Assembly (NCBI RefSeq): GCF_002205845.1
Contig: NZ_NISI01000006.1
Location: forward strand, 124,001 to 188,000
Length of the DNA stretch: 64,000 nucleotides
From: Roseateles puraquae
Lineage (GTDB): Bacteria; Pseudomonadota; Gammaproteobacteria; Burkholderiales; Burkholderiaceae_C
Reading direction: 5' to 3'
Part shown: piece after piece, positions 43,976 to 53,491 of the stretch
How positions within the stretch are numbered: position 1 is the stretch's first letter
Layout: every line of letters starts with the position of its first letter
Translations under genes and position numbers: made by a program
Notes under the pieces: model-generated
Database searches by the model: none
What the model saw: only the letters and a program-made list of their open reading frames with translations
What the model was told of the DNA's origin: nothing

Positions 43976-46216
43976 TCACCGCCCGCGGCGCTGCCACAGC
44001 GCCTTCTTGCCCTTCAACTGCCGCTCGATGCCGTCGTTCAGCCGCGCTCGCAGGTCGATGACCTCTTCCACGTAGCCGAACACGCCCGGGAAGCGCAGGT
44101 CCAGCCACAGCCACAGCGTGCAGATGCGCAGCGCCTGCTCCATGCGGTCCAGGCGCCCGTGCTGGTCGTATTCGTCCAGGAAGTGCGGCTCGCCGGCCTT
44201 GCCGGTGCGGGCGTGGTTCTGCGCCCAGCCGTGGAACTGGTCCACCAGCATCGGCAGGCGCGAGTCCACCGGCGCCTGGGCGTAGCGAAAGCGCTCCTGC
44301 AGCGGGAGCGCGATGGCGTTGCGGTCCAGCACTTCCGCCAGTTCGAGCATCTGCTCCAGCTCGGCCACGGCGAAGTGGGCGTCGTCCAGGCGCAGCTGCT
44401 GCATGAAGATGTTGAGCACCGCGTAGAGCTTGTTCACGCCCAGGCGGCGCGAGATGGTCTCCACATGCCGCCAGTTGGGGGCCACCGGCGCCTTGAAGTC
44501 GCGCGGGGCGCGGGGCTCCTTGGGCAGCAGCTGGCGCAGCGTCTTCATCGCGTCCGCCTCGGCCTCCTTGAGCACGCTGACGAAGCCCTCATCGTGCATG
44601 CCGTACCGGCCCGCGCGGCCCGCGATCTGGTGCACCTCGCTGACGCTGAGTTCGCGGTCACCCACGCCGTCGAACTTGGTCAGCGTGGAGAACAGCACGC
44701 GGCGGATGGGCAGGTTCAGGCCCATGCCGATGGCATCGGTCGCCACCAGGATGTCGCTCGCGCCCACCGCGAAGCGCTCGGCCTCGCGGCGGCGCACCTC
44801 GGGCGGCAGCGCGCCGTAGATGACGCTCACCGCATGGCCGTTCTGGGCGATCTGGTCGCGCAGCATCAGCACGTCGCGGCGGCTGAAGGCCACGACCGCG
44901 TCGCCCGCCTGCAGCTGTGTCATCGGCACGGGCGCCGGCATCAGCTGCACATGCTGCTTGCGCTCGAACAGGCGCCGCTCGGGCTTCTCGCCGCACAGCT
45001 GCAGCAGCCGCTCGATCGCGGGCGCGGCGTAGGCCGAGCCGATGATGATGAGCTCGCGCGCCGGCACGCCGACGATGGCCTGGGTCCAGGCCCAGCCGCG
45101 CGAGTCGTCGAAGATCATCTGCGCCTCGTCGATGACGGCCACGTCCACCACGTCGCGGGTGTTGACCATCTCGATGGTGCTGGAGACGACCCGGGCGTTG
45201 TCGGCCGGCACGCTCTCCTCGCCGGTCAACAGCGAGCAGGGCACGCCCCGGCCGACCAGCCGGTCCCGGCCCTCCAGCGCCAGCAGGCGCAGCGGCGCCA
45301 GGTACGCCCCGTCCAGCGCCTGCGCCAGCCGCTCGAAGGCCGCATGCGTCTTGCCGCTGTTGGGCGGCCCCAGGTAGAGCGTGACCTTGCGGCCGAGCTT
45401 GCGCGCGGCGTCGAAGCTGTCGGGGTAGCCCTGGAAGGCCAGCTCGCGGCCGAGGCTGGCCAGCGTGCTCTGCTCCTCCACCTGCTGTTCCCAGCGGTCC
45501 TGCGCCCGGGTGAGCGCCGCCTTCAGGTCGTCGAAGGGCATGGGCACGCCGCACTCGGCCTGCAGGCGCGGCAGCAGTGAGGCGAGCTGGGCGCTGTCGG
45601 CCAGGGCCTCGCTGCGGGCCACGAGGTGGTTCAGGTGCAGGGCCAGCTCGGCCTGATAGGAATACGCCGGTGCCTGGCCAAGCGCATGACGCAGCGCGGC
45701 CTGGTCGCCATCGCGGAAGAAGGCCCAGACCGGCGCCTCGGGCACGGGCACCCGGTGCGAGAGGTCGATGCGCCAGGCCTCATGCGCCAGCGTGATCGGG
45801 TGGATGCACAACCGCGTGAACACCAGGCCTTCGCGACGCAGCCCCAGGCTTTCGAGCTGGTGCAGGCGCTGCTGCATCAGGGCGCGCAGGGTGTTGGCCA
45901 GCGGTGTCGCATCGAGCTGCGCCAGCGCGACCGGGATGTGCTGCGGCAGGATCCAGCGGCTGGGCCGCCCGCCGCCGGCCGCCTTGGCGATCTGGATGGC
46001 GCCCAGGCGGTCCAGTGCGTCGTCGCTGCCGTCATCCAGGTCGGCCGGCACCAGCACCTGCGGCAGCGCATAAGCCGCCTGGCGGATGCGGGCCCAGTCC
46101 TCCGGCGCGAGGCCGGCAGGCAGTCGGGAGGCGTGACGAGGCTGGGGGAGGGGGAAGGCCGGCGCAGGCGGGCGGGCCGGCTTGGGGCTGGAGAGCGGAG
46201 AGACTTCTGAATTCAC
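43976..46216 (-). CDS. SUV3-like superfamily-2 helicase
   Basis: A 746-residue helicase. Walker A is GPPNSGKTHAAF near 280-290, the DEAD-like box is VIDEAQMI near 355, and motif VI is QIAGRAGR near 525. These and a SUV3-like C-terminal domain assign it to the Suv3 group of RNA helicases, found in betaproteobacteria as well as mitochondria. It starts at a GTG overlapping the stop of a trypsin-like protease gene by 4 nt, so both are coupled. Function in bacteria is little known; RNA turnover is inferred. Confidence 0.87.
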   Translation of the reverse strand: MNSEVSPLSSPKPARPPAPAFPLPQPRHASRLPAGLAPEDWARIRQAAYALPQVLVPADLDDGSDDALDRLGAIQIAKAAGGGRPSRWILPQHIPVALAQLDATPLANTLRALMQQRLHQLESLGLRREGLVFTRLCIHPITLAHEAWRIDLSHRVPVPEAPVWAFFRDGDQAALRHALGQAPAYSYQAELALHLNHLVARSEALADSAQLASLLPRLQAECGVPMPFDDLKAALTRAQDRWEQQVEEQSTLASLGRELAFQGYPDSFDAARKLGRKVTLYLGPPNSGKTHAAFERLAQALDGAYLAPLRLLALEGRDRLVGRGVPCSLLTGEESVPADNARVVSSTIEMVNTRDVVDVAVIDEAQMIFDDSRGWAWTQAIVGVPARELIIIGSAYAAPAIERLLQLCGEKPERRLFERKQHVQLMPAPVPMTQLQAGDAVVAFSRRDVLMLRDQIAQNGHAVSVIYGALPPEVRRREAERFAVGASDILVATDAIGMGLNLPIRRVLFSTLTKFDGVGDRELSVSEVHQIAGRAGRYGMHDEGFVSVLKEAEADAMKTLRQLLPKEPRAPRDFKAPVAPNWRHVETISRRLGVNKLYAVLNIFMQQLRLDDAHFAVAELEQMLELAEVLDRNAIALPLQERFRYAQAPVDSRLPMLVDQFHGWAQNHARTGKAGEPHFLDEYDQHGRLDRMEQALRICTLWLWLDLRFPGVFGYVEEVIDLRARLNDGIERQLKGKKALWQRRGR

Positions 46217-47013
46217 GCCGGAAGTGGAACACAGGCCGCGTCAGGCGCCGCCTCGCCCGGCGGCACCGCGGGCGCGGTGGGCTCGGTCAGCGTCATCAGG
46301 ATGTCGGGGTACCAGGCGGCGTTCAAGCCGAGCGACTCGTCGACGCCCTGGTCCCGGTTCCCCATGTCCAGGCGCGAGGAATGGATGCCTGCCAGCAGCC
46401 AGGGCAGAGCGCCGCGCCCGGGCGCCCGCATCACCACGGGCGCACCACTGATACCGCGGTGCGTGCGCGCGTCCGTCAGGAAGCAGCCCCGGCCCTGGAA
46501 CCGCCAACCATAGGGCGAGGCCACGCTGCCTTGCCGCACCACGGGCACGTGATGCAGCCCGTCGTGAAACCCCAGCGGGAAGCCGGGGATGAGCAGCGGC
46601 TCGCCCAAGCCAATATCGTCCCCGGGGCCGGGCAAGTGCTCGGGCGTGAAGGCCGCCATCGCCACATCAGCCGGCAGGGCGGCGGGGTCGATCTCCAACA
46701 CGCCGACGTCGATCTCGCTGCCCTCGTCGCGGCCCTGGCGCCAGTTGGCCAGGCCCTCCCGGTAGAGCAACACCGACAGGCCGATGGAATCGGCCAGGTT
46801 GTCGGCGTCGGGGTGGATCTCGATCTCCAGGCGGTCGGGGTGGTGGCCGCTGGGTTCGTCGATGAAGACGTGCCGGCTGCTGACCAGGTAGAGCCGCCCG
46901 CCGCGCCGGAAAAAGAATCCCGTCGCATTCGTCAGGCCGATCTTGCCGACAAAGGTGCCGATGCGCGCCGTGGCCAGCAGCAGAGGGTCGATGGGTGCGG
47001 CAGCGGCAGTCAA
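46213..47013 (-). CDS. Trypsin-like serine protease
   Basis: A 266-residue trypsin-like peptidase without a signal peptide. Catalytic candidates are His in SSRHVFID, Asp in EIDVGVLEI and Ser in THRGISGAPVV, the GxSGxP motif. The lack of a signal suggests cytoplasmic action, unlike typical Deg proteases. It overlaps the helicase gene and follows the small upstream gene by 10 nt. Confidence 0.85.
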   Translation of the reverse strand: MTAAAAPIDPLLLATARIGTFVGKIGLTNATGFFFRRGGRLYLVSSRHVFIDEPSGHHPDRLEIEIHPDADNLADSIGLSVLLYREGLANWRQGRDEGSEIDVGVLEIDPAALPADVAMAAFTPEHLPGPGDDIGLGEPLLIPGFPLGFHDGLHHVPVVRQGSVASPYGWRFQGRGCFLTDARTHRGISGAPVVMRAPGRGALPWLLAGIHSSRLDMGNRDQGVDESLGLNAAWYPDILMTLTEPTAPAVPPGEAAPDAACVPLPA

Positions 47014-47023
47014 GGCGCCGTGC

Positions 47024-47308
47024 TCAGTGCGACGGCTGGGGCGAGGCGCGCCCCAGCATCGAAGCGAGATGCTTGCAGACGTTCTCGCCGGTGGTCGTCA
47101 GGCGCAGCGAACCGCCATGCCACTCCATCCAGTGCAGGGCGACATAGTCCTCGATAAAACCCTCGTCGATCTCGGCCGCGCGGCGACGCTTGAGAAGGTC
47201 GACCGTGGCGAGCAGCCTGTCGCGCAGGGTGTCGCGGCGAGAGACCGGCGACGGGGTGGCAGGCAGCGACAGCTTGCGGACAGTACGGGGCTTGGTGGAA
47301 GCGTTCAT
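47024..47308 (-). CDS. Small protein upstream of the trypsin-like protease gene
   Basis: A 94-residue protein without a recognised family. It is basic at the start and then has a helical middle rich in Leu/Arg/Glu (RDTLRDRLLATVDLLKRRRAA in outline), with no signal peptide or membrane helix. It sits 10 nt upstream of the protease gene in the same direction, so it is probably part of that operon. Confidence 0.65.
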   Translation of the reverse strand: MNASTKPRTVRKLSLPATPSPVSRRDTLRDRLLATVDLLKRRRAAEIDEGFIEDYVALHWMEWHGGSLRLTTTGENVCKHLASMLGRASPQPSH

Positions 47309-47656: not shown

Positions 47657-50404
47657 CTACAGGGCCCTGGGCCGGGTGCCGTCTGAAGGCGCGGCGATCC
47701 AGGCCTGCAGCTCCGCCGCCCGCGCATGCTTGGGCGCCAGCGCCAGGAAGGTCTTGTACGCGGCCATGGCCTTGGCGTCGTCGCCGGCCTGCAGGCGGGC
47801 GTCGCCCAGGTTGAGCCAGGCAAGCGACCGGCTGGCATCCATCTCCACGGCCTTCTCGAACCAGCCTGCGGCCTCGGCGAACTTGGACCGACGGTAGAGC
47901 ACGAAGCCCAGGTTGTTGGCGGCCAGCGCGAACTTCGGCTGCAGTTGCAGCGCTTCCTTGAAGGCGGCTTCGGCCTCGTCGTAGCGGCGCTCGCGGTAGA
48001 GCTGCAGGCCGCGGTCGTTGGCGCGCTGGGCGGCCACGCGGGCGCCGGGGTCCACACGGGCGGTGGTGGCGGCCAGGGCCTGGTCTTTGCCGTCCAGGCC
48101 CTTGATGGTCACCTGCACGCCGCTGGCGCCGCCGGCGGCAGGAGCGGCCTGGCGGCTGGCGGTGCTGGCCTCGTCAATCTTGGCCGCCAGCTGGCTGGCC
48201 TTGTCGTCGAGCTGGGCGACGGCACCGCTCAGGCCGGGCTCCTGCGCGGTGGGCAATTCGAAAACGAACTCACCGCCCTCGCTGCCCGGCAGGCTGCCGA
48301 AGGCGGGCGTCTGGTGCGCAATCGCCGACACCGCGGGCGCCACGTAGGCGGCCAGCTCGGTCGCGGTGATCAGGCCGTCGCCGTTGAGGTCAGCCTTGCC
48401 GTTCAGGGCCTGCAGCAGTGTCCAGGTGAAGACGGAGTGGCCGCCCGGACCGTCGTCGGCCACCTGCTGGTCGGCGCCGCCGGCAGTCATCATCTGGCGG
48501 CCCACGCGGCGGGCATTGGTGCGGGCGAAGTTGCTGTCGGCCGCCACGCTGCCGGCGCGGGTCAGGCCCAGGCCCGAGTAGCAGGCGTCGATGACGAACA
48601 GGGCGTGCTTGGCCGTGATGGCCTCGGCCACCTCCTGCAGCTGCGGCATGGCGATGGCGTCGGCCTGTAGGTCGTTCAGGCCCGCGTCCACCGGCACGAT
48701 GTAGCCCACCTCGCGGCCGCTGGGCAACTTGCGGGTGCTGCCATGGCCGGCGAAGAAGACGAACACGCGGTCGTCGCGCTTCACGCGTTTGGCGTCGCCG
48801 AAGCGCTCGTTCATGGCCTTCAGGATGTTGGCGCGCGTGGCCTCGGCGTCGGTCAGCAGGGTGACGTTGTCGGGCTTGAAGCCGAATCGCGTGACCAGCG
48901 CCTCGCGCACGGCCTGCGCATCGCGCACCGCATGCGCGAGCTTGGGCCAGGCGCTGTAGCCATTGATGCCGATGACCAGCGCATGGCTCTCGCGGTAGAG
49001 CTCGCCGGCCGCGAGCTGGGGCGGCGCGGGGCGGTCGCCGCTGATGACGAACTGCCCGTCCTTGAAGCTCGCGAAGCGCCAGCCGTCGGCGGCGAGCTGG
49101 TCGAGCACCAGCGGCAGCGCCTGCACGGTGCGGGCATGGATGTCGTGGAAGAGCACGATGCCGCGCTGCTGCTTCTCCAGCTCGGCCAGCACGCGCGCGG
49201 CGATGCTCTTGGGGATGGGGTCACTCCAGTCGAGGGAGTCGACGTTCCACATCATCGAGCGCAGCTTCAGCGCCTCGATGGTGCTCAAGGCGCCGTCGTT
49301 GCGGGCGCCGTACGGAAAACGAAACAGGGCGTCACCGCTGCGACCCGCCGCGTCCAGCAGCGCCTCCGTGTTCGCGGCCTCTTCCTTCACCTTGACCAGC
49401 TCGAACTTGCTCATCAGCCCATGGGTGAAGCTGTGGTTGGCCAGCTGATGCCCTGCGGCCAGCACACGCTTGGCCACCGCACTGCCGTTGCCCGGCAGCG
49501 GCTTGCCATCGGCGCCGACCTTGCCGAGGTTCTGCCCCAGCTGGAAGAACACGGCGGGTGCCTGGTAGCGCTTGAGGATGTCCAGGATCTCGTCGGTGTA
49601 GCGCGGGTGCGGGCCGTCGTCGAAGGTCAGCAGCACGGTCTTGGGCGGGAGCTTGTCGCCGAAGACCTCGCGGTCCTTGGCGGCCACGCCGCGCATCGCG
49701 CCTGATGCTGCCGAAGCCGGCACCTCCGGTGCGAGGTCCGCCGCCGCGGGCAGCTGGGCGCCGTGCTGCTTCATGACGGCCTCGCGGGTGTGCAGGGCGC
49801 GCAGCTTGGCGGTGTAGTCGGTCCAGCGTTCGCGCTTGAGCTCGATGCCGCGCTTGGCGAAGCCGCCGAAGACCTCCTTGAGCTCCTGCTCGTAGGCCTT
49901 CTGTACCTCGGCCAGGGTGTCGATGTCCTCCTGCGCCCGCCGGGCCAGCTTGATGCCGTCCAGCGTCTGCGAGGCCTTCAGGCCCGTGGCCAGTTGCTCC
50001 AGCACCTCCTTGAACGCCAGGCGGTCGGCGTCGAACCAGCCCGGCTCGCTCTCGATGCGGGTCAGCAGCGCGGTGGTGGCCTCCAGCGCGGCGGGCTGGA
50101 GCGCCGCCTCGGCCAGCGCCTGCTGGCGCTGCAGCAGCTCATGGAAGAGCTGCTGGCCCAGGGCCTGCACCTCACGGCGCTGCGCGGCGGGCAGTGCGGC
50201 CTCGCCGTCCATCAGCACGATGATCTGCCGGTGCAGGGCCAGCAGCCCGTCGGCCTGCTGGCTCAGGCGCGCGGTGGCGCCGGTGTCCTGTGGCGCCGAA
50301 GCGGCCGGCAGGGCGGCCGGCACGTTCTCGTTGCGCTGGCAGCCGGCCAGGCTCAGGGCCACGGCCAAGGGCAGGGACAGAGGAAGGAAGACTCGCAGGG
50401 ACAT
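47657..50404 (-). CDS. Lipoprotein fusing NodB polysaccharide deacetylase, caspase-like protease, EF-hand and TPRs
   Basis: A 915-residue exported lipoprotein. The lipobox is LSLAGC (Cys22), and a helical stretch of about 200 residues follows. The NodB-type deacetylase domain (about 255-455) has DD in TFDDGPHP (262-263), metal His in NHSFTH (324, 328), FRFPYG (361-366) and LFHD (418-421). The caspase/metacaspase domain (about 473-715) has His554 in FFAGHG and Cys608 in DACYSG, so both catalytic residues are present. An EF-hand loop with canonical Asp672, Asn674, Asp676 and Glu683 lies inside it. TPR repeats (about 790-890) close the protein. The ATG at 50404 is preferred because it opens the lipoprotein signal. 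A cell-envelope carbohydrate and protease role is implied, and the substrate is unknown. Confidence 0.9.
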   Translation of the reverse strand: MSLRVFLPLSLPLAVALSLAGCQRNENVPAALPAASAPQDTGATARLSQQADGLLALHRQIIVLMDGEAALPAAQRREVQALGQQLFHELLQRQQALAEAALQPAALEATTALLTRIESEPGWFDADRLAFKEVLEQLATGLKASQTLDGIKLARRAQEDIDTLAEVQKAYEQELKEVFGGFAKRGIELKRERWTDYTAKLRALHTREAVMKQHGAQLPAAADLAPEVPASAASGAMRGVAAKDREVFGDKLPPKTVLLTFDDGPHPRYTDEILDILKRYQAPAVFFQLGQNLGKVGADGKPLPGNGSAVAKRVLAAGHQLANHSFTHGLMSKFELVKVKEEAANTEALLDAAGRSGDALFRFPYGARNDGALSTIEALKLRSMMWNVDSLDWSDPIPKSIAARVLAELEKQQRGIVLFHDIHARTVQALPLVLDQLAADGWRFASFKDGQFVISGDRPAPPQLAAGELYRESHALVIGINGYSAWPKLAHAVRDAQAVREALVTRFGFKPDNVTLLTDAEATRANILKAMNERFGDAKRVKRDDRVFVFFAGHGSTRKLPSGREVGYIVPVDAGLNDLQADAIAMPQLQEVAEAITAKHALFVIDACYSGLGLTRAGSVAADSNFARTNARRVGRQMMTAGGADQQVADDGPGGHSVFTWTLLQALNGKADLNGDGLITATELAAYVAPAVSAIAHQTPAFGSLPGSEGGEFVFELPTAQEPGLSGAVAQLDDKASQLAAKIDEASTASRQAAPAAGGASGVQVTIKGLDGKDQALAATTARVDPGARVAAQRANDRGLQLYRERRYDEAEAAFKEALQLQPKFALAANNLGFVLYRRSKFAEAAGWFEKAVEMDASRSLAWLNLGDARLQAGDDAKAMAAYKTFLALAPKHARAAELQAWIAAPSDGTRPRAL

Positions 50405-50505: not shown

Positions 50506-51438
50506 ATGAATCTGCCTGCCTTCTCCCGCCGGCTGCTGGCCATCCTCGGCCTGAGCCTGACCGTCACGGCCTTCGCCCAGTCGCCTGCCGACGCGCCCCT
50601 GCCCGGCGTGCAGCACGGCCGCATCGAACGCTGGGCCAACCTGCCGTCCAAGTTCGTGGATGCGCGCCATGTGGACATCTGGCTGCCCGACGGCTACACG
50701 CCCACCCAGCGCTATGCGGTGCTCTACATGCACGATGGCCAGATGCTCTTCGATGCGCGCACCACCTGGAACAAGCAGGCCTGGCACGTGCAGGACGCGC
50801 TGACGCGCCTGCGCGCCGCCGGCCGCATCCGGGACGTCATCGTGGTGGGTGTGTGGAACAACGGCAAGTGGCGCCACAGCGAGTACATGCCGCAAGCCTT
50901 CCTGCCGGGGCTGCCGCCGGACTTCCGCGAGGCCCTGGTGCGCGACGGCCTGCAGGGCAAGCCCCAGAGCGACGCCTACCTGCGCTTCCTCGTCGAGGAA
51001 CTCAAGCCCGCCATCGACGCGCGCTACGCCACCCGGCCCGACCGCGACAACACCTTCATCATGGGCTCCAGCATGGGCGGCCTGATCTCGGTCTATGCGA
51101 TGAACCGCTACCCCGAGGTCTTCGGCGGCGCGGCCGGCCTGTCCACCCACTGGGTGGGCATCTTCAAGCCCAACGCCGCACTGCCGCTGGCGGCCTTCAA
51201 CTTCCTGCGCGAGCACCTGGCCGACCCGGCCACCCACCGCCTCTACCAGGACCACGGCACGATCGAGCTCGACGCGCTCTACGCGCCCTACCAGTCCATC
51301 GTCAACAGCCTGGCCCGCGAGCGCGGCTACACGGATGGCCGCAACTTCCTGGCACTGACCTTCGAAGGCACCGGCCACAACGAGACCGCCTGGGCGCAGC
51401 GGCTGGAAGTGCCGCTGGCCTTCCTGCTGCAGCCCTGA
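50506..51438 (+). CDS. Exported alpha/beta-hydrolase esterase
   Basis: A 310-residue exported enzyme with a signal peptide ending near AFAQ (about 25). The nucleophile motif GSSMGG (about 187-192) and a likely catalytic His in EGTGHNETAW fit the putative-esterase (esterase D/Fes-like) family. The protein resembles enterochelin-esterase-like or feruloyl esterases; the substrate is unknown. It is divergent from the fusion lipoprotein gene, with about 100 bp between. Confidence 0.85.
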   Translation: MNLPAFSRRLLAILGLSLTVTAFAQSPADAPLPGVQHGRIERWANLPSKFVDARHVDIWLPDGYTPTQRYAVLYMHDGQMLFDARTTWNKQAWHVQDALTRLRAAGRIRDVIVVGVWNNGKWRHSEYMPQAFLPGLPPDFREALVRDGLQGKPQSDAYLRFLVEELKPAIDARYATRPDRDNTFIMGSSMGGLISVYAMNRYPEVFGGAAGLSTHWVGIFKPNAALPLAAFNFLREHLADPATHRLYQDHGTIELDALYAPYQSIVNSLARERGYTDGRNFLALTFEGTGHNETAWAQRLEVPLAFLLQP

Positions 51439-51541
51439 GGCCCAGGGGAGGGGCCTCGCGCGGGAGGGCTGCGGCCGTCAGCCCGCCGCTGGCAACATGG
51501 GCCGAGCCGGCACGCCGGCCGCCCACACTCCGGAGGACCCC

Positions 51542-53491
51542 ATGAAGACCTGGCTGGCCGCGCTCGCGGCGCTGACCCTGGCGGGCTGCAACCGCCCTGC
51601 TGAACTGCCCGCCGCCACCGGCGACGTCACGCCCACCACGCTGCAGGCGCAGGCGGCCGTGGCACAGGCCCTGCCGCTGGCCGAGCAGCAGGCCTTCGAC
51701 GATGCCGCCCGCGGCCTGATCGCCCGGCCCGATGGGCAGATCCTGGCCGAGGACGGCCGCGTGCTGATGGACTTCGACGCCTACCGCTTCGTGCAGGGCG
51801 AGGCGCCGCCCACGGTCAACCCGAGCCTGTGGCGGCAGGCCAAGCTCAATGCCCAGATCGGGCTGTTCAAGGTGGTCGAGGGCGTGTGGCAGCTGCGCGG
51901 CTTCGACATCGGCAACATGACGCTCGTGCAGGGCCGCAGCGGCTGGATCGTCATCGACGCCCTCACCTGCCGCGAAACTGCGGCTGCGGCCATCGCCTTC
52001 GCGCGCAAGCACCTGGGCAACCAGCCCGTCACTGCGCTGCTCTACACCCACAGCCATGTGGACCATTTCGGCGGCGCGCTCGGCCTGCTGACGCCCGAGC
52101 AGGCCCGCCAGGTGCCGGTGATCGCCTCCGCCGGCTTCATGGAGGAGGCCACGAGTGAGAACCTGATGGTTGGCACGGCGATGGCGCGCCGCTCGATCTA
52201 CCAGTTCGGCAAGAACCTGCCTGCCACCGTCCAGGGGCGCGTGGACACCGGCCTGGGCAAGGGCGTGGGCTACGGCCGCGTCGGGCTGCTGGCGCCCAAC
52301 GACCTCATCACCCAGCCCACGGAGGAACGCACGCTCGATGGCGTGCGCTTCATCTTCCACAACGTGCCGGGCGCGGAGGCCCCGGCGGAGATGACCTTCT
52401 CCATCCCGGCGCTCAAGGTCTACGGCGGCGCCGAGAACCTCGCCCAGACCCTGCACAACCTGCTGCCGGTGCGCGGTGCCAAGGTACGCGACGCGCTGCG
52501 CTGGGCCGGCTACCTGCAGGACGCCCTCGACCAGCTCGGCGATGCCGAGGTCTACGTGGGCCAGCACAACTGGCCGGTCTGGGGGCGCGAGCGCATCGTC
52601 GACTTCATCACCCGCCAGCGCGATGCCTACAAATACCTGCACGACCAGACGGTGCGCCTGATCAACGCCGGCCTGACGCCCGCCGAGATCGCCGAGCAGG
52701 TCAAGCTGCCGGCCTCGCTGCAGACCTTCTTCCCGACGCGCGGCTATTACGGTGACGTGCGCCACAACGTCAAGGCCATCTACCAGTTCTACCTCGGCGC
52801 CTACGACGGCAACCCGGCCCACCTCAACCCGCTGCCACCGGAGGTGATGGGCCGGCGCTACGTGACCCTGGCCGGTGGCGCCGACAAGCTGATGGCCGCT
52901 GCACAGCAGGCCTTCGACGAGGGCGACTACCGCTGGGCGGCGGAGCTGCTGAACCGCCTGGTGATGGCCGACAGCCGCCACACCGGTGCGCGCCAGCTGC
53001 TGGCCCGCACCTACGACCAACTCGGCTACGCCGCCGAGGCCGCCACCTGGCGCAACAGCTACCTCAGCGCGGCGGCGGAGCTGCGCCAGGGGCCGCCGCA
53101 GCAGGGCATCGACCGGTCAGTGGCGCTGGACATGCTGCAGCAAACGCCCACCGAGCGCTTCCTGGAGGCGATGGCCGCCGGCCTGAACGGCCCGGCCGCC
53201 GAGGGCAAGGACTACCGCATCAACCTCGTCTTCACCGACCGCCCCGAAAGCCATGTGCTGTGGATCGAGAACGCGGTGCTGCACCACCGACGCGCCTCGC
53301 CCGCGGCGGACGCCCACGCGACGATGAAGCTCACCCATGCCTTCTTCATCCGGATGATGGCCGGCAAGGTGGGCGCCAAGGACCTGCTGATGTCTGACGA
53401 GATCCAGATCAGCGGCAGCCGCATCGACCTGGCCCGCTTCCTCGGCCTGATCGACAAGGCCCCGGGCACGTTCCCGATCGTCACGCGCTGA
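51542..53491 (+). CDS. Alkyl/aryl-sulfatase (SdsA1/YjcS family), lipoprotein
   Basis: A 649-residue enzyme with a lipobox (LTLAGC, Cys about 16). The MBL domain has metal-binding THSHVDHFGG (169-178), followed by a dimerisation domain and a C-terminal SCP2-like domain. Full length and motifs match the type III alkylsulfatases that hydrolyse SDS and other primary alkyl sulfates. Known members are often secreted; this one is predicted to be lipid-anchored. GGAG precedes the ATG at 51542. The esterase upstream is separated by about 100 bp. Confidence 0.9.
   Translation: MKTWLAALAALTLAGCNRPAELPAATGDVTPTTLQAQAAVAQALPLAEQQAFDDAARGLIARPDGQILAEDGRVLMDFDAYRFVQGEAPPTVNPSLWRQAKLNAQIGLFKVVEGVWQLRGFDIGNMTLVQGRSGWIVIDALTCRETAAAAIAFARKHLGNQPVTALLYTHSHVDHFGGALGLLTPEQARQVPVIASAGFMEEATSENLMVGTAMARRSIYQFGKNLPATVQGRVDTGLGKGVGYGRVGLLAPNDLITQPTEERTLDGVRFIFHNVPGAEAPAEMTFSIPALKVYGGAENLAQTLHNLLPVRGAKVRDALRWAGYLQDALDQLGDAEVYVGQHNWPVWGRERIVDFITRQRDAYKYLHDQTVRLINAGLTPAEIAEQVKLPASLQTFFPTRGYYGDVRHNVKAIYQFYLGAYDGNPAHLNPLPPEVMGRRYVTLAGGADKLMAAAQQAFDEGDYRWAAELLNRLVMADSRHTGARQLLARTYDQLGYAAEAATWRNSYLSAAAELRQGPPQQGIDRSVALDMLQQTPTERFLEAMAAGLNGPAAEGKDYRINLVFTDRPESHVLWIENAVLHHRRASPAADAHATMKLTHAFFIRMMAGKVGAKDLLMSDEIQISGSRIDLARFLGLIDKAPGTFPIVTR

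What the first reader, a model, noticed from the sequence alone, without database searches (positions are those of the whole stretch)
47657..50404. A lipoprotein joining polysaccharide deacetylase, caspase-like protease, EF-hand and TPR
Four normally separate modules lie in one 915-residue chain. The catalytic residues of both enzymes appear intact: NodB Asp262/Asp263 and His324/His328, and caspase His554 and Cys608. A canonical EF-hand loop (Asp672-Asn674-Asp676-Glu683) sits inside the caspase domain, and TPRs follow. With a lipobox, the protease would act in the periplasm or at the outer membrane. Bacterial caspase homologues are linked to regulated cell death and defence, whereas here the neighbouring activity is on cell-wall or matrix carbohydrate. 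A calcium- or wall-damage-triggered surface protease is a testable idea.
Basis: partly seen in the sequence, partly recalled or inferred. Interest (0 to 1): 0.8.

Follow-up and report, generated by a model that had tools for sequence, protein, structure and literature searches.

The report
Exported sugar-deacetylase–caspase fusion, already described
The gene really does encode one exported protein that joins a carbohydrate deacetylase to an intact caspase-like protease with a calcium-loop motif and TPR repeats, but this combination was described in 2012 as the Xanthomonas-type metacaspase; what is left to test is that it appears to sit outside the cytoplasm and to be built to cut after arginine or lysine, which fits badly with its suggested role as a caspase-3-like death enzyme.

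Summary
Window 47657-50404, minus strand, is one intact 915-aa ORF (97.9 kDa) with a lipobox, a CE4 deacetylase, a caspase-fold (C14) protease, a canonical EF-hand loop inside the caspase domain, and TPRs. The named residues are invariant in 67 of 67 full-architecture relatives.

The architecture is not new: Asplund-Samuelsson et al. 2012 (PMC3501461) named it the 'Xanthomonas-type metacaspase'. Here 28 of 299 sampled genomes of the window's family carry it, and 16 of 149 in a second family, where an mnmE/trmE match lies just downstream in 16 of 16, as published. One tree holds both groups. The EF loop is not special to this fusion: 8 of 34 other C14 proteins have it at the same place.

What I add: relatives carry a lipobox (54 of 67) or, by eye, another export-like segment; S1-type Asp residues predict Arg/Lys cleavage, not the Asp (DEVD) cleavage measured in Xanthomonas cell death; an invariant Arg after the catalytic Cys marks a possible self-cleavage loop (self-processing was already suggested in 2012). 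I read it as an envelope-anchored Arg/Lys protease tied to a peptidoglycan-type deacetylase. New member of a known kind.

The parts
47657..50404 (-). whole gene, 915-aa lipoprotein (deacetylase + caspase-fold + TPR)
   Evidence: ORF and translation; full-length relatives at 47-99% identity
50339..50404 (-). signal peptide and lipobox LAGC22 (residues 1-22)
   Evidence: sequence; lipobox in 54 of 67 relatives (regex gave 54; one search showed L024 a false hit and L040 with PGC a true one, so again 54)
49760..50284 (-).
   Evidence: no Pfam match in this stretch at E up to 1 except CSTF_C at 69-86 (0.018, under its cut-off); model of residues 40-240 pLDDT 88.6; no solved structure at Foldseek E<=0.001
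49043..49672 (-). CE4 / NodB polysaccharide deacetylase domain, residues 245-454
   Evidence: Pfam PF01522; Z 22.0 to 4l1g, 21.1 to SpPgdA 2c1g
49616..49621 (-). CE4 motif Asp pair, D262 D263
   Evidence: 67 of 67 identical
49421..49435 (-). CE4 metal-binding H324-S-F-T-H328
   Evidence: 67 of 67 identical at H324 and H328
48251..49000 (-). caspase-fold (C14) domain, residues 469-718
   Evidence: Pfam PF00656; MALT1 4i1r Z 21.8
48743..48745 (-). catalytic His554 (GHG)
   Evidence: 67 of 67; 49 of 49 in a wider C14 alignment
48581..48589 (-). D606-A-C608: catalytic Cys with the preceding Asp expected in a basic-selective S1 pocket
   Evidence: D606 and C608 67 of 67, and 49 of 49 in the wider C14 alignment
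48557..48559 (-). Arg616, candidate self-cleavage site in the disordered loop after the catalytic Cys (inferred)
   Evidence: 67 of 67 in the family, 3 of 27 in other C14 rows; loop 610-635 pLDDT under 50
48356..48391 (-). EF-hand loop DLNGDGLITATE, residues 672-683, between two helices of the caspase fold
   Evidence: 67 of 67 at loop positions 1, 3, 5, 12; helix-loop-strand-helix in the model, loop at low pLDDT 56-60
47726..48019 (-). TPR repeats, residues 796-893
   Evidence: three TPR_2 stretches; helices, blocks 801-900 at pLDDT 87-96

Best explanation
A member of the published Xanthomonas-type metacaspase family, in a Roseateles-like bacterium. Shown: an intact chain with invariant catalytic residues of both enzymes, the predicted fold of both enzyme domains, and an N-terminal signal with lipobox. 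Inferred: it works in the periplasm, anchored to a membrane (probably the outer one, as residue +2 after the lipobox Cys is Gln, not Asp; sorting rule recalled from E. coli). The deacetylase acts on GlcNAc of peptidoglycan or another periplasmic polysaccharide. The caspase-fold domain is an orthocaspase-type protease that cuts after Arg or Lys. It may cut itself in the loop after the catalytic Cys (Arg616) and so release or switch the other parts; self-processing of this protein type was already suggested in PMC3501461. The EF loop binds one calcium ion that braces the turn between two helices of the caspase fold, so the protease might fold fully only after export, where calcium is high. The likely job is envelope maintenance or remodelling rather than killing the cell from inside. 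My estimates: family identity 0.97, exported 0.9, active Arg/Lys protease 0.7, calcium bound 0.7, self-processing that controls the deacetylase 0.3.
For: Identity: same architecture and mass as printed; relatives in a second family at 50-53% identity, 49% in one truncated member, with an mnmE match in the 1.5-kb downstream flank, same strand, in 16 of 16 (MnmE and ribosomal L34 confirmed by Pfam in locus L132), the neighbour the 2012 paper reports; 10 of those 16 rows, left after thinning at 95% identity, form one branch (100/100) in the 54-row family tree. Export: lipobox in 54 of 67; the 13 others by eye mostly have a membrane-anchor-like segment. Residue +2 is not Asp in 52 of 54 (L017 and L064 have Asp). 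Activity: H554/C608 67 of 67; superposition on MALT1 and metacaspases. Specificity: D495 and D606 67 of 67, aligned with Asp residues of solved metacaspases; C14 proteases other than caspases have an acidic pocket and a strict Arg/Lys preference (PMC5756287, passage). Deacetylase type: NCBIfam best match PgdA (1.2e-34, far under its cut-off), best CE4 match in the PDB SpPgdA. Self-processing: the one characterised orthocaspase, MaOC1, autoprocesses (PMC5756287); R616 is invariant in the family and in 3 of 27 others, one of which (L105) is a near relative.
Against: No activity, calcium binding or self-cleavage is shown. Orthocaspases and paracaspases are described as calcium-independent (PMC5756287). 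A single cut after R616 would give about 65 and 31 kDa, not the 55-kDa caspase band cited for Xanthomonas (PMC3501461). The export-licence idea failed its only test: EF-loop and EF-less C14 proteins with a near-N-terminal domain have signal-like segments about equally often (8 of 9 against 13 of 15, p = 1; with a stricter hydrophobicity cut, 6 of 9 against 11 of 15). The full-length model is only moderately confident (pLDDT 71.8, pTM 0.36; EF loop 56-60) and no coordinates were available. Gene neighbours give no functional hint outside close relatives. 13 of 67 relatives lack a lipobox, so lipidation itself is not essential to the family. The published Xanthomonas sequences were not fetched.
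Confidence: 0.6

Rival explanations
1. It is a programmed-cell-death executioner, as suggested for the Xanthomonas relatives: stress activates the caspase part, which kills the cell.
For: The 2012 survey ties this protein type to caspase activity and post-exponential death in X. campestris pv. glycines and cites cross-reaction of the gene's product with caspase and PARP antibodies (PMC3501461); caspase-3-like activity accompanies death in X. campestris pv. campestris (PMC4006831, passages).
Against: The activity was measured with the Asp-P1 substrate Ac-DEVD-AMC and FITC-DEVD-FMK, but the pocket here and in the relatives has the Asp residues of Arg/Lys-cutting enzymes, and Asp-P1 substrates are judged inappropriate for orthocaspases (PMC5756287). 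The 16 mnmE-linked relatives all start with a lipobox signal (read by eye), which points outside the cytoplasm. None of the passages read describes a knockout of this gene.
Confidence: 0.12
2. The deacetylase is the working enzyme and the C14-EF-TPR part is a scaffold or binding module with little or no proteolysis.
For: Relatives with only the N-terminal helical domain and the deacetylase exist (L034/L138, L160-L162), so the deacetylase can do without the protease; the N-terminal domain was found only with a deacetylase (20 of 20 genomes with a hit).
Against: The C14 domain is the most conserved part (mean identity to the window protein 0.79, against 0.73 for the deacetylase and 0.74 for the TPRs, 50 rows) and H554, C608, D495, D606 never vary in 67 rows, unlike the pseudo-orthocaspases described in PMC6426788.
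Confidence: 0.2
3. A calcium- or wall-damage-triggered switch: change in free calcium turns the surface protease on.
For: Canonical EF loop, invariant, inside the catalytic domain and joining two helices of the fold; plant and algal metacaspases depend on calcium, though through other sites (PMC5756287).
Against: A single unpaired loop in a calcium-rich compartment would probably be saturated (inference); the orthocaspase studied is calcium-independent; nothing in the sequence points to a damage sensor.
Confidence: 0.15
4. Anti-phage defence effector.
For: PADLOC 'caspase' model matches 473-631 (1.1e-20).
Against: That match is the protease fold alone. Pfam names of the six flanking ORFs scanned are a Suv3-type helicase, a trypsin-like protease, an esterase, an alkyl sulfatase, an MBL-fold protein and one without a match; PADLOC was not run on them. 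Signal peptide points outside the cytoplasm. In the plasmid collection 1 record matched, over the C14 part only.
Confidence: 0.03

Closest known systems
Xanthomonas-type metacaspase (Asplund-Samuelsson, Bergman and Larsson 2012, PMC3501461; seen: outline with abstract, sections 10 and 13, and passages)
   Same: Polysaccharide deacetylase, then C14 domain with His-Cys dyad, then 1-3 TPRs; 97-100 kDa; in 16 of 16 relatives of one family the published neighbour trmE/mnmE lies just downstream.
   Different: The window copy is in a Roseateles-like bacterium and not next to mnmE; the paper's main text holds 0 occurrences of EF-hand or calcium, and the parts I saw do not mention the N-terminal helical domain or a lipobox.
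Orthocaspases, e.g. MaOC1 of Microcystis (via PMC5756287, passages)
   Same: Prokaryotic C14 protease with His-Cys dyad and basic-P1 type pocket residues.
   Different: Extra deacetylase, TPR and N-terminal domains, signal peptide, EF loop in the fold.
MALT1 paracaspase and metacaspases (PDB 4i1r, 6w8r, 4f6o)
   Same: Caspase fold over 469-718 (Z 21.8 to 4i1r, 19.4 to 6w8r); active-site residues aligned.
   Different: Eukaryotic, no deacetylase; in a weak second stretch (4.6 bits) the 4f6o (Metacaspase-1) sequence has a gap where the EF loop lies.
CE4 peptidoglycan GlcNAc deacetylases (SpPgdA 2c1g, Bc1960 4l1g, Bdellovibrio Bd3279 5jp6)
   Same: Fold and the five CE4 motifs.
   Different: Fused to a protease; substrate untested.
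LapG-type periplasmic calcium-dependent cysteine proteases (recalled, no call)
   Same: Would work alike: a calcium-using cysteine protease outside the cytoplasm that alters the cell surface.
   Different: Another protease family; comparison is by analogy only and was not tested.

Membership tests
Xanthomonas-type metacaspase | Polysaccharide deacetylase N-terminal to a C14 domain in one chain | tested here: met
   order stated in PMC3501461
Xanthomonas-type metacaspase | Conserved Cys-His dyad (17 of 17 in the paper) | tested here: met
   H554 and C608, 67 of 67 relatives
Xanthomonas-type metacaspase | One to three C-terminal TPRs, 97-100 kDa | tested here: met
   three TPR_2 stretches; 97.9 kDa
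Xanthomonas-type metacaspase | Common descent with the mnmE-linked copies | tested here: met
   49-53% identity, 15 of 16 over nearly the whole length and one (G1027) truncated; one tree.
Xanthomonas-type metacaspase | Adjacent trmE/mnmE (reported for Xanthomonas, Xylella, Stenotrophomonas; not part of the architecture) | tested here: not met
   six flanking ORFs scanned: Suv3-type helicase, trypsin-like protease, a 94-aa ORF without a match, esterase, alkyl sulfatase, MBL-fold protein
Xanthomonas-type metacaspase | Role in programmed cell death | not testable with these tools
   no experiment available
CE4 deacetylase | Motifs TFDDGP, HS/TxxH, RxPYG, DxxDW, LxH (motif list recalled) | tested here: met
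   D262, D263, H324, H328, R362, D392, H420 67 of 67; motif strings
Orthocaspase (C14 without p10) | C14 domain lacking a p10 domain | tested here: inconclusive
   no separate p10 model was run; the fold match covers 469-718
EF-hand | Canonical 12-residue loop D-x-N-x-D-G-x-I-x-x-x-E between two helices | tested here: met
   (loop at low confidence)
EF-hand | Score above the Pfam cut-off | tested here: not met
   EF-hand_5 14.9 bits against 25.9; EF-hand_1 11.9 against 25.4
EF-hand | Calcium binding | not testable with these tools
   needs protein
Bacterial lipoprotein | Signal peptide ending in a lipobox Cys | tested here: met
   LAGC22 by sequence; no trained signal-peptide predictor was available

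The most novel reading that the evidence does not exclude
The whole family, the Xanthomonas copies included, is not an intracellular death caspase but an envelope-anchored, calcium-braced, Arg/Lys-specific self-cutting protease that controls a peptidoglycan deacetylase on the same chain: proteolytic control of cell-wall deacetylation, with calcium acting as the sign that the enzyme has left the cytoplasm.
Probability: 0.25. Interest if true: 0.65.

Novelty: new member of a known kind. Interest (0 to 1): 0.35.

Why it matters
The fusion itself is known. In nine paper searches (listings seen, four papers opened in part) the only laboratory evidence on this protein type that I came across is the antibody cross-reaction and the correlated caspase activity in Xanthomonas cited in PMC3501461. 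If the lipobox, the basic-P1 pocket and the calcium loop hold at the bench, that 'bacterial caspase' story would need to be retold: the protein would be in the wrong place and have the wrong specificity for the DEVD-cutting activity linked to death. It would also give an example of proteolytic control built into a cell-wall enzyme.

Tried and rejected
Defence system: one PADLOC match to the protease fold; Pfam names of six flanking ORFs suggest no defence gene, PADLOC not run on them. Mobile origin: plasmid collection, 1 record with a match and none covering 80%. Operon logic: window neighbours recur only in close relatives (of 31 loci, some cut short: helicase 10, small ORF 8, trypsin-like 6, MBL-fold 4, esterase 3, alkyl sulfatase 3), so neighbours are not used for function; a length-greedy gene caller was poor in this GC-rich DNA, and of its genes only mnmE and L34 of L132, confirmed by Pfam, are relied on. 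EF loop as a novelty of this fusion: rejected, same site in 8 of 34 other C14 rows that reach it (51 rows from 58 loci; loci were best hits per genome, so not a random sample; L105, one of the 8, is itself a near relative with a deacetylase ORF next to it) and in L163. EF loop as a marker of export: no association (8 of 9 against 13 of 15). The hydrophobicity cut had been 2.0 in the failed and I lowered it to 1.7 after seeing its printed values; at 2.0 the counts are 6 of 9 against 11 of 15, the same conclusion. One search also used a slightly looser EF pattern; 29 rows with the C14 domain far from the ORF start were left out. Fold of the N-terminal domain: 435 Foldseek matches at E up to 10, none at 0.001, best 0.42, best VIA Z 7.2, in the range that helical bundles give by chance; a new fold is not claimed. 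EF-to-active-site distance: no coordinates returned, not measured. The 55-kDa caspase band reported for Xanthomonas is not explained by one cut after R616 (64.7 and 31.1 kDa).
Full report
WHAT IS THERE. The coordinates hold one intact ORF on the minus strand, ATG at 50404 and stop ending at 47657, 915 residues, 97.9 kDa. An in-frame GTG upstream (50494) would give 945 residues, but the ATG form opens directly into a signal peptide with lipobox LAGC22. Pfam finds a polysaccharide deacetylase (251-382, 1.3e-25), a C14 caspase domain (474-693, 9.1e-22) and TPRs from 796 on; EF-hand models fall under their cut-offs. A pattern for a canonical EF loop occurs once, at 672, and in 52 of 20,000 shuffles of the protein.

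CONSERVATION. Full-architecture relatives were collected (28 of 299 genomes of the window's family carry deacetylase and C14 together, the window's own genome included; in one of them, G282, the gene is broken by two TAG codons, and G218 came as two matches; 31 loci of named records; 22 of them titled Roseateles, Pelomonas, Mitsuaria, Inhella or Rhizobacter; 2 full-length beyond the own genome in 369 genomes of the class; 16 of 149 in the family of G462, one of them truncated; 3 full-length others and one fragment at a contig edge among 200 genomes of the order). After removal of duplicates and the window's own gene, of the broken L019/L065, the fragment L159 and the false row L164, 67 rows remain. 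In all 67, D262, D263, H324, H328, R362, D392, H420, H554, C608 and EF positions D672, N674, D676, E683 are unchanged. In an earlier 51-row set, which held one copy of the window's own gene, the lipobox Cys column was Cys in 41. In the 67 rows the lipobox is present in 54: a regex gave 54, of which L024 is a false hit, while L040 (PGC) was missed. Of the 13 rows without it, 12 show a hydrophobic anchor-like stretch after a basic start and L158 a plain signal-peptide-like start (and 82 listings, read by eye). Residue +2 after the Cys is not Asp in 52 of the 54. So an export-type N-terminus is the rule; lipidation is usual, not universal.

STRUCTURE. The model of the whole chain is moderate (pLDDT 71.8, pTM 0.36), but its enzyme domains match solved folds strongly: 469-718 with MALT1 4i1r (Z 21.8), 472-720 with metacaspase 4 (19.4), 467-718 with caspase-9 (19.2); 239-453 with the CE4 deacetylase 4l1g (Z 22.0). 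A profile of 49 C14 domains aligns GHG and D-x-C with solved metacaspases. The EF loop joins helix 658-670 to helix 681-695 with a short strand between, the EF-hand order, but blocks 671-690 have pLDDT of only 56-60. In a weak second stretch of the profile alignment to Metacaspase-1 4f6o (4.6 bits) the loop falls in a gap, so I take it as an elaboration of a helix-helix turn. It turned up in 20 genomes over two samples (4 of 200 and 17 of 150, the own genome in both): 18 in fused chains, one (G144) in a deacetylase without C14, one (G721) in a deacetylase ORF next to a C14-TPR ORF; never without a deacetylase in these 20. Three more deacetylases with this domain and without C14 came (L160-L162; alignment coverage).

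IT IS A KNOWN KIND. Asplund-Samuelsson et al. 2012 (PMC3501461; I saw the outline with abstract, sections 10 and 13, and passages) describe the 'Xanthomonas-type metacaspase': deacetylase, C14 domain, one to three TPRs, 97-100 kDa, 17 sequences in Xanthomonas, Xylella, Stenotrophomonas and two Acidobacteria, with trmE as operon neighbour. In the unnamed family of G462 all 16 carriers have an mnmE match on the same strand in the 1.5-kb flank downstream of the fusion gene; Pfam confirms MnmE and ribosomal protein L34 in locus L132. The 10 of these 16 that remain after thinning at 95% identity form a single branch (100/100) in the 54-row tree with the window protein.

THE EF LOOP IN CONTEXT. Of 51 other C14 rows (from 58 loci), 34 reach the EF site and 8 hold the loop, plus L163. 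It is thus a trait of part of the C14 family, not of this fusion. EF-hand motifs on archaeal orthocaspases are mentioned in PMC6426788 (7 proteins; passage). I tested whether the loop goes with export: no (8 of 9 EF rows and 13 of 15 EF-less rows have a signal-like segment, p = 1; 6 of 9 and 11 of 15 with the stricter cut first used; 29 rows with the C14 domain far from the start were left out). The one EF row without a segment, L105, is the split G721 gene.

HOW IT LIKELY WORKS. D495 and D606 are invariant in the family (67 of 67) and D606 in all 49 C14 rows. That Asp at these places makes the S1 pocket basic-selective is recalled from work on MALT1 and metacaspases; that non-caspase C14 enzymes have an acidic pocket and prefer Arg/Lys is stated in PMC5756287 (passage). 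Arg616, eight residues after the catalytic Cys and inside a loop of very low confidence (610-635), is invariant in the family but present in only 3 of 27 other C14 rows, L105, L106 and L069. I take it as a candidate self-cleavage site; this is inference. Self-processing of this protein type was already proposed in PMC3501461, to explain a 55-kDa band against a 100-kDa gene product (passage); a single cut after R616 would give about 65 and 31 kDa, so it would not by itself explain that band. The deacetylase is nearest to peptidoglycan GlcNAc deacetylases (NCBIfam PgdA 1.2e-34 but under its cut-off; SpPgdA in the PDB). My reading: an envelope-anchored Arg/Lys protease and deacetylase in one chain, calcium probably structural, with the protease perhaps trimming the chain itself.

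CONFLICT WITH THE CELL-DEATH STORY. The Xanthomonas work measured caspase-3-like activity on Ac-DEVD-AMC and with FITC-DEVD-FMK (PMC4006831, passages). An Arg/Lys-type pocket and a lipobox in 16 of 16 mnmE-linked relatives (read by eye) make this gene an unlikely source. PMC5756287 already warns that Asp substrates are inappropriate for orthocaspases. The location argument I did not find in print in the searches, of which I saw only the listings and opened four papers in part; subscription journals are largely missing from that library.

VERDICT. Observation confirmed; architecture already known; a new member in a lineage that the parts of the 2012 paper I saw do not name for this type. Interest 0.35, mostly for the testable mismatch of place and specificity.

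Noticed in passing
L036 (JAIPCJ010000038.1), whole locus: A contig titled Methylotenera sp. MAG carries the same seven genes as the window with 96-100% protein identity, so the contig or MAG label looks wrong.
   Followed up: no
L019 1492-4296 and L065 5800-8604 (Rhizobacter sp. OV335): The fusion gene is interrupted by two in-frame TAG codons, giving three contiguous ORFs in one frame: a decayed copy or sequencing errors.
   Followed up: no
L139 54-2547: In G721, of the same phylum but another class, the deacetylase (441 aa) and the C14-TPR part (364 aa) are separate neighbouring ORFs with a damaged junction; either a broken fusion or a two-gene form.
   Followed up: partly
window 49760-50284, minus strand: N-terminal helical domain, found only together with polysaccharide deacetylases in the samples searched (20 of 20 genomes with a hit), without a Pfam family.
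   Followed up: partly
window 51497-53491, plus strand: Alkyl sulfatase (MBL fold) with a lipobox-like start (by eye), next to a putative esterase (50506-51438) divergent from the fusion gene.
   Followed up: no
window 43976-47308, minus strand: Downstream genes on the same strand: Suv3-type helicase, trypsin-like protease and a 94-aa ORF without a Pfam match, kept together in several close relatives.
   Followed up: no
control C14 loci, and L004: Of 24 C14 rows with the domain near the ORF start, 21 begin with a signal-peptide-like segment by a simple hydrophobicity test, so exported bacterial caspase homologues may be common in this phylum; the sample is not random.
   Followed up: partly
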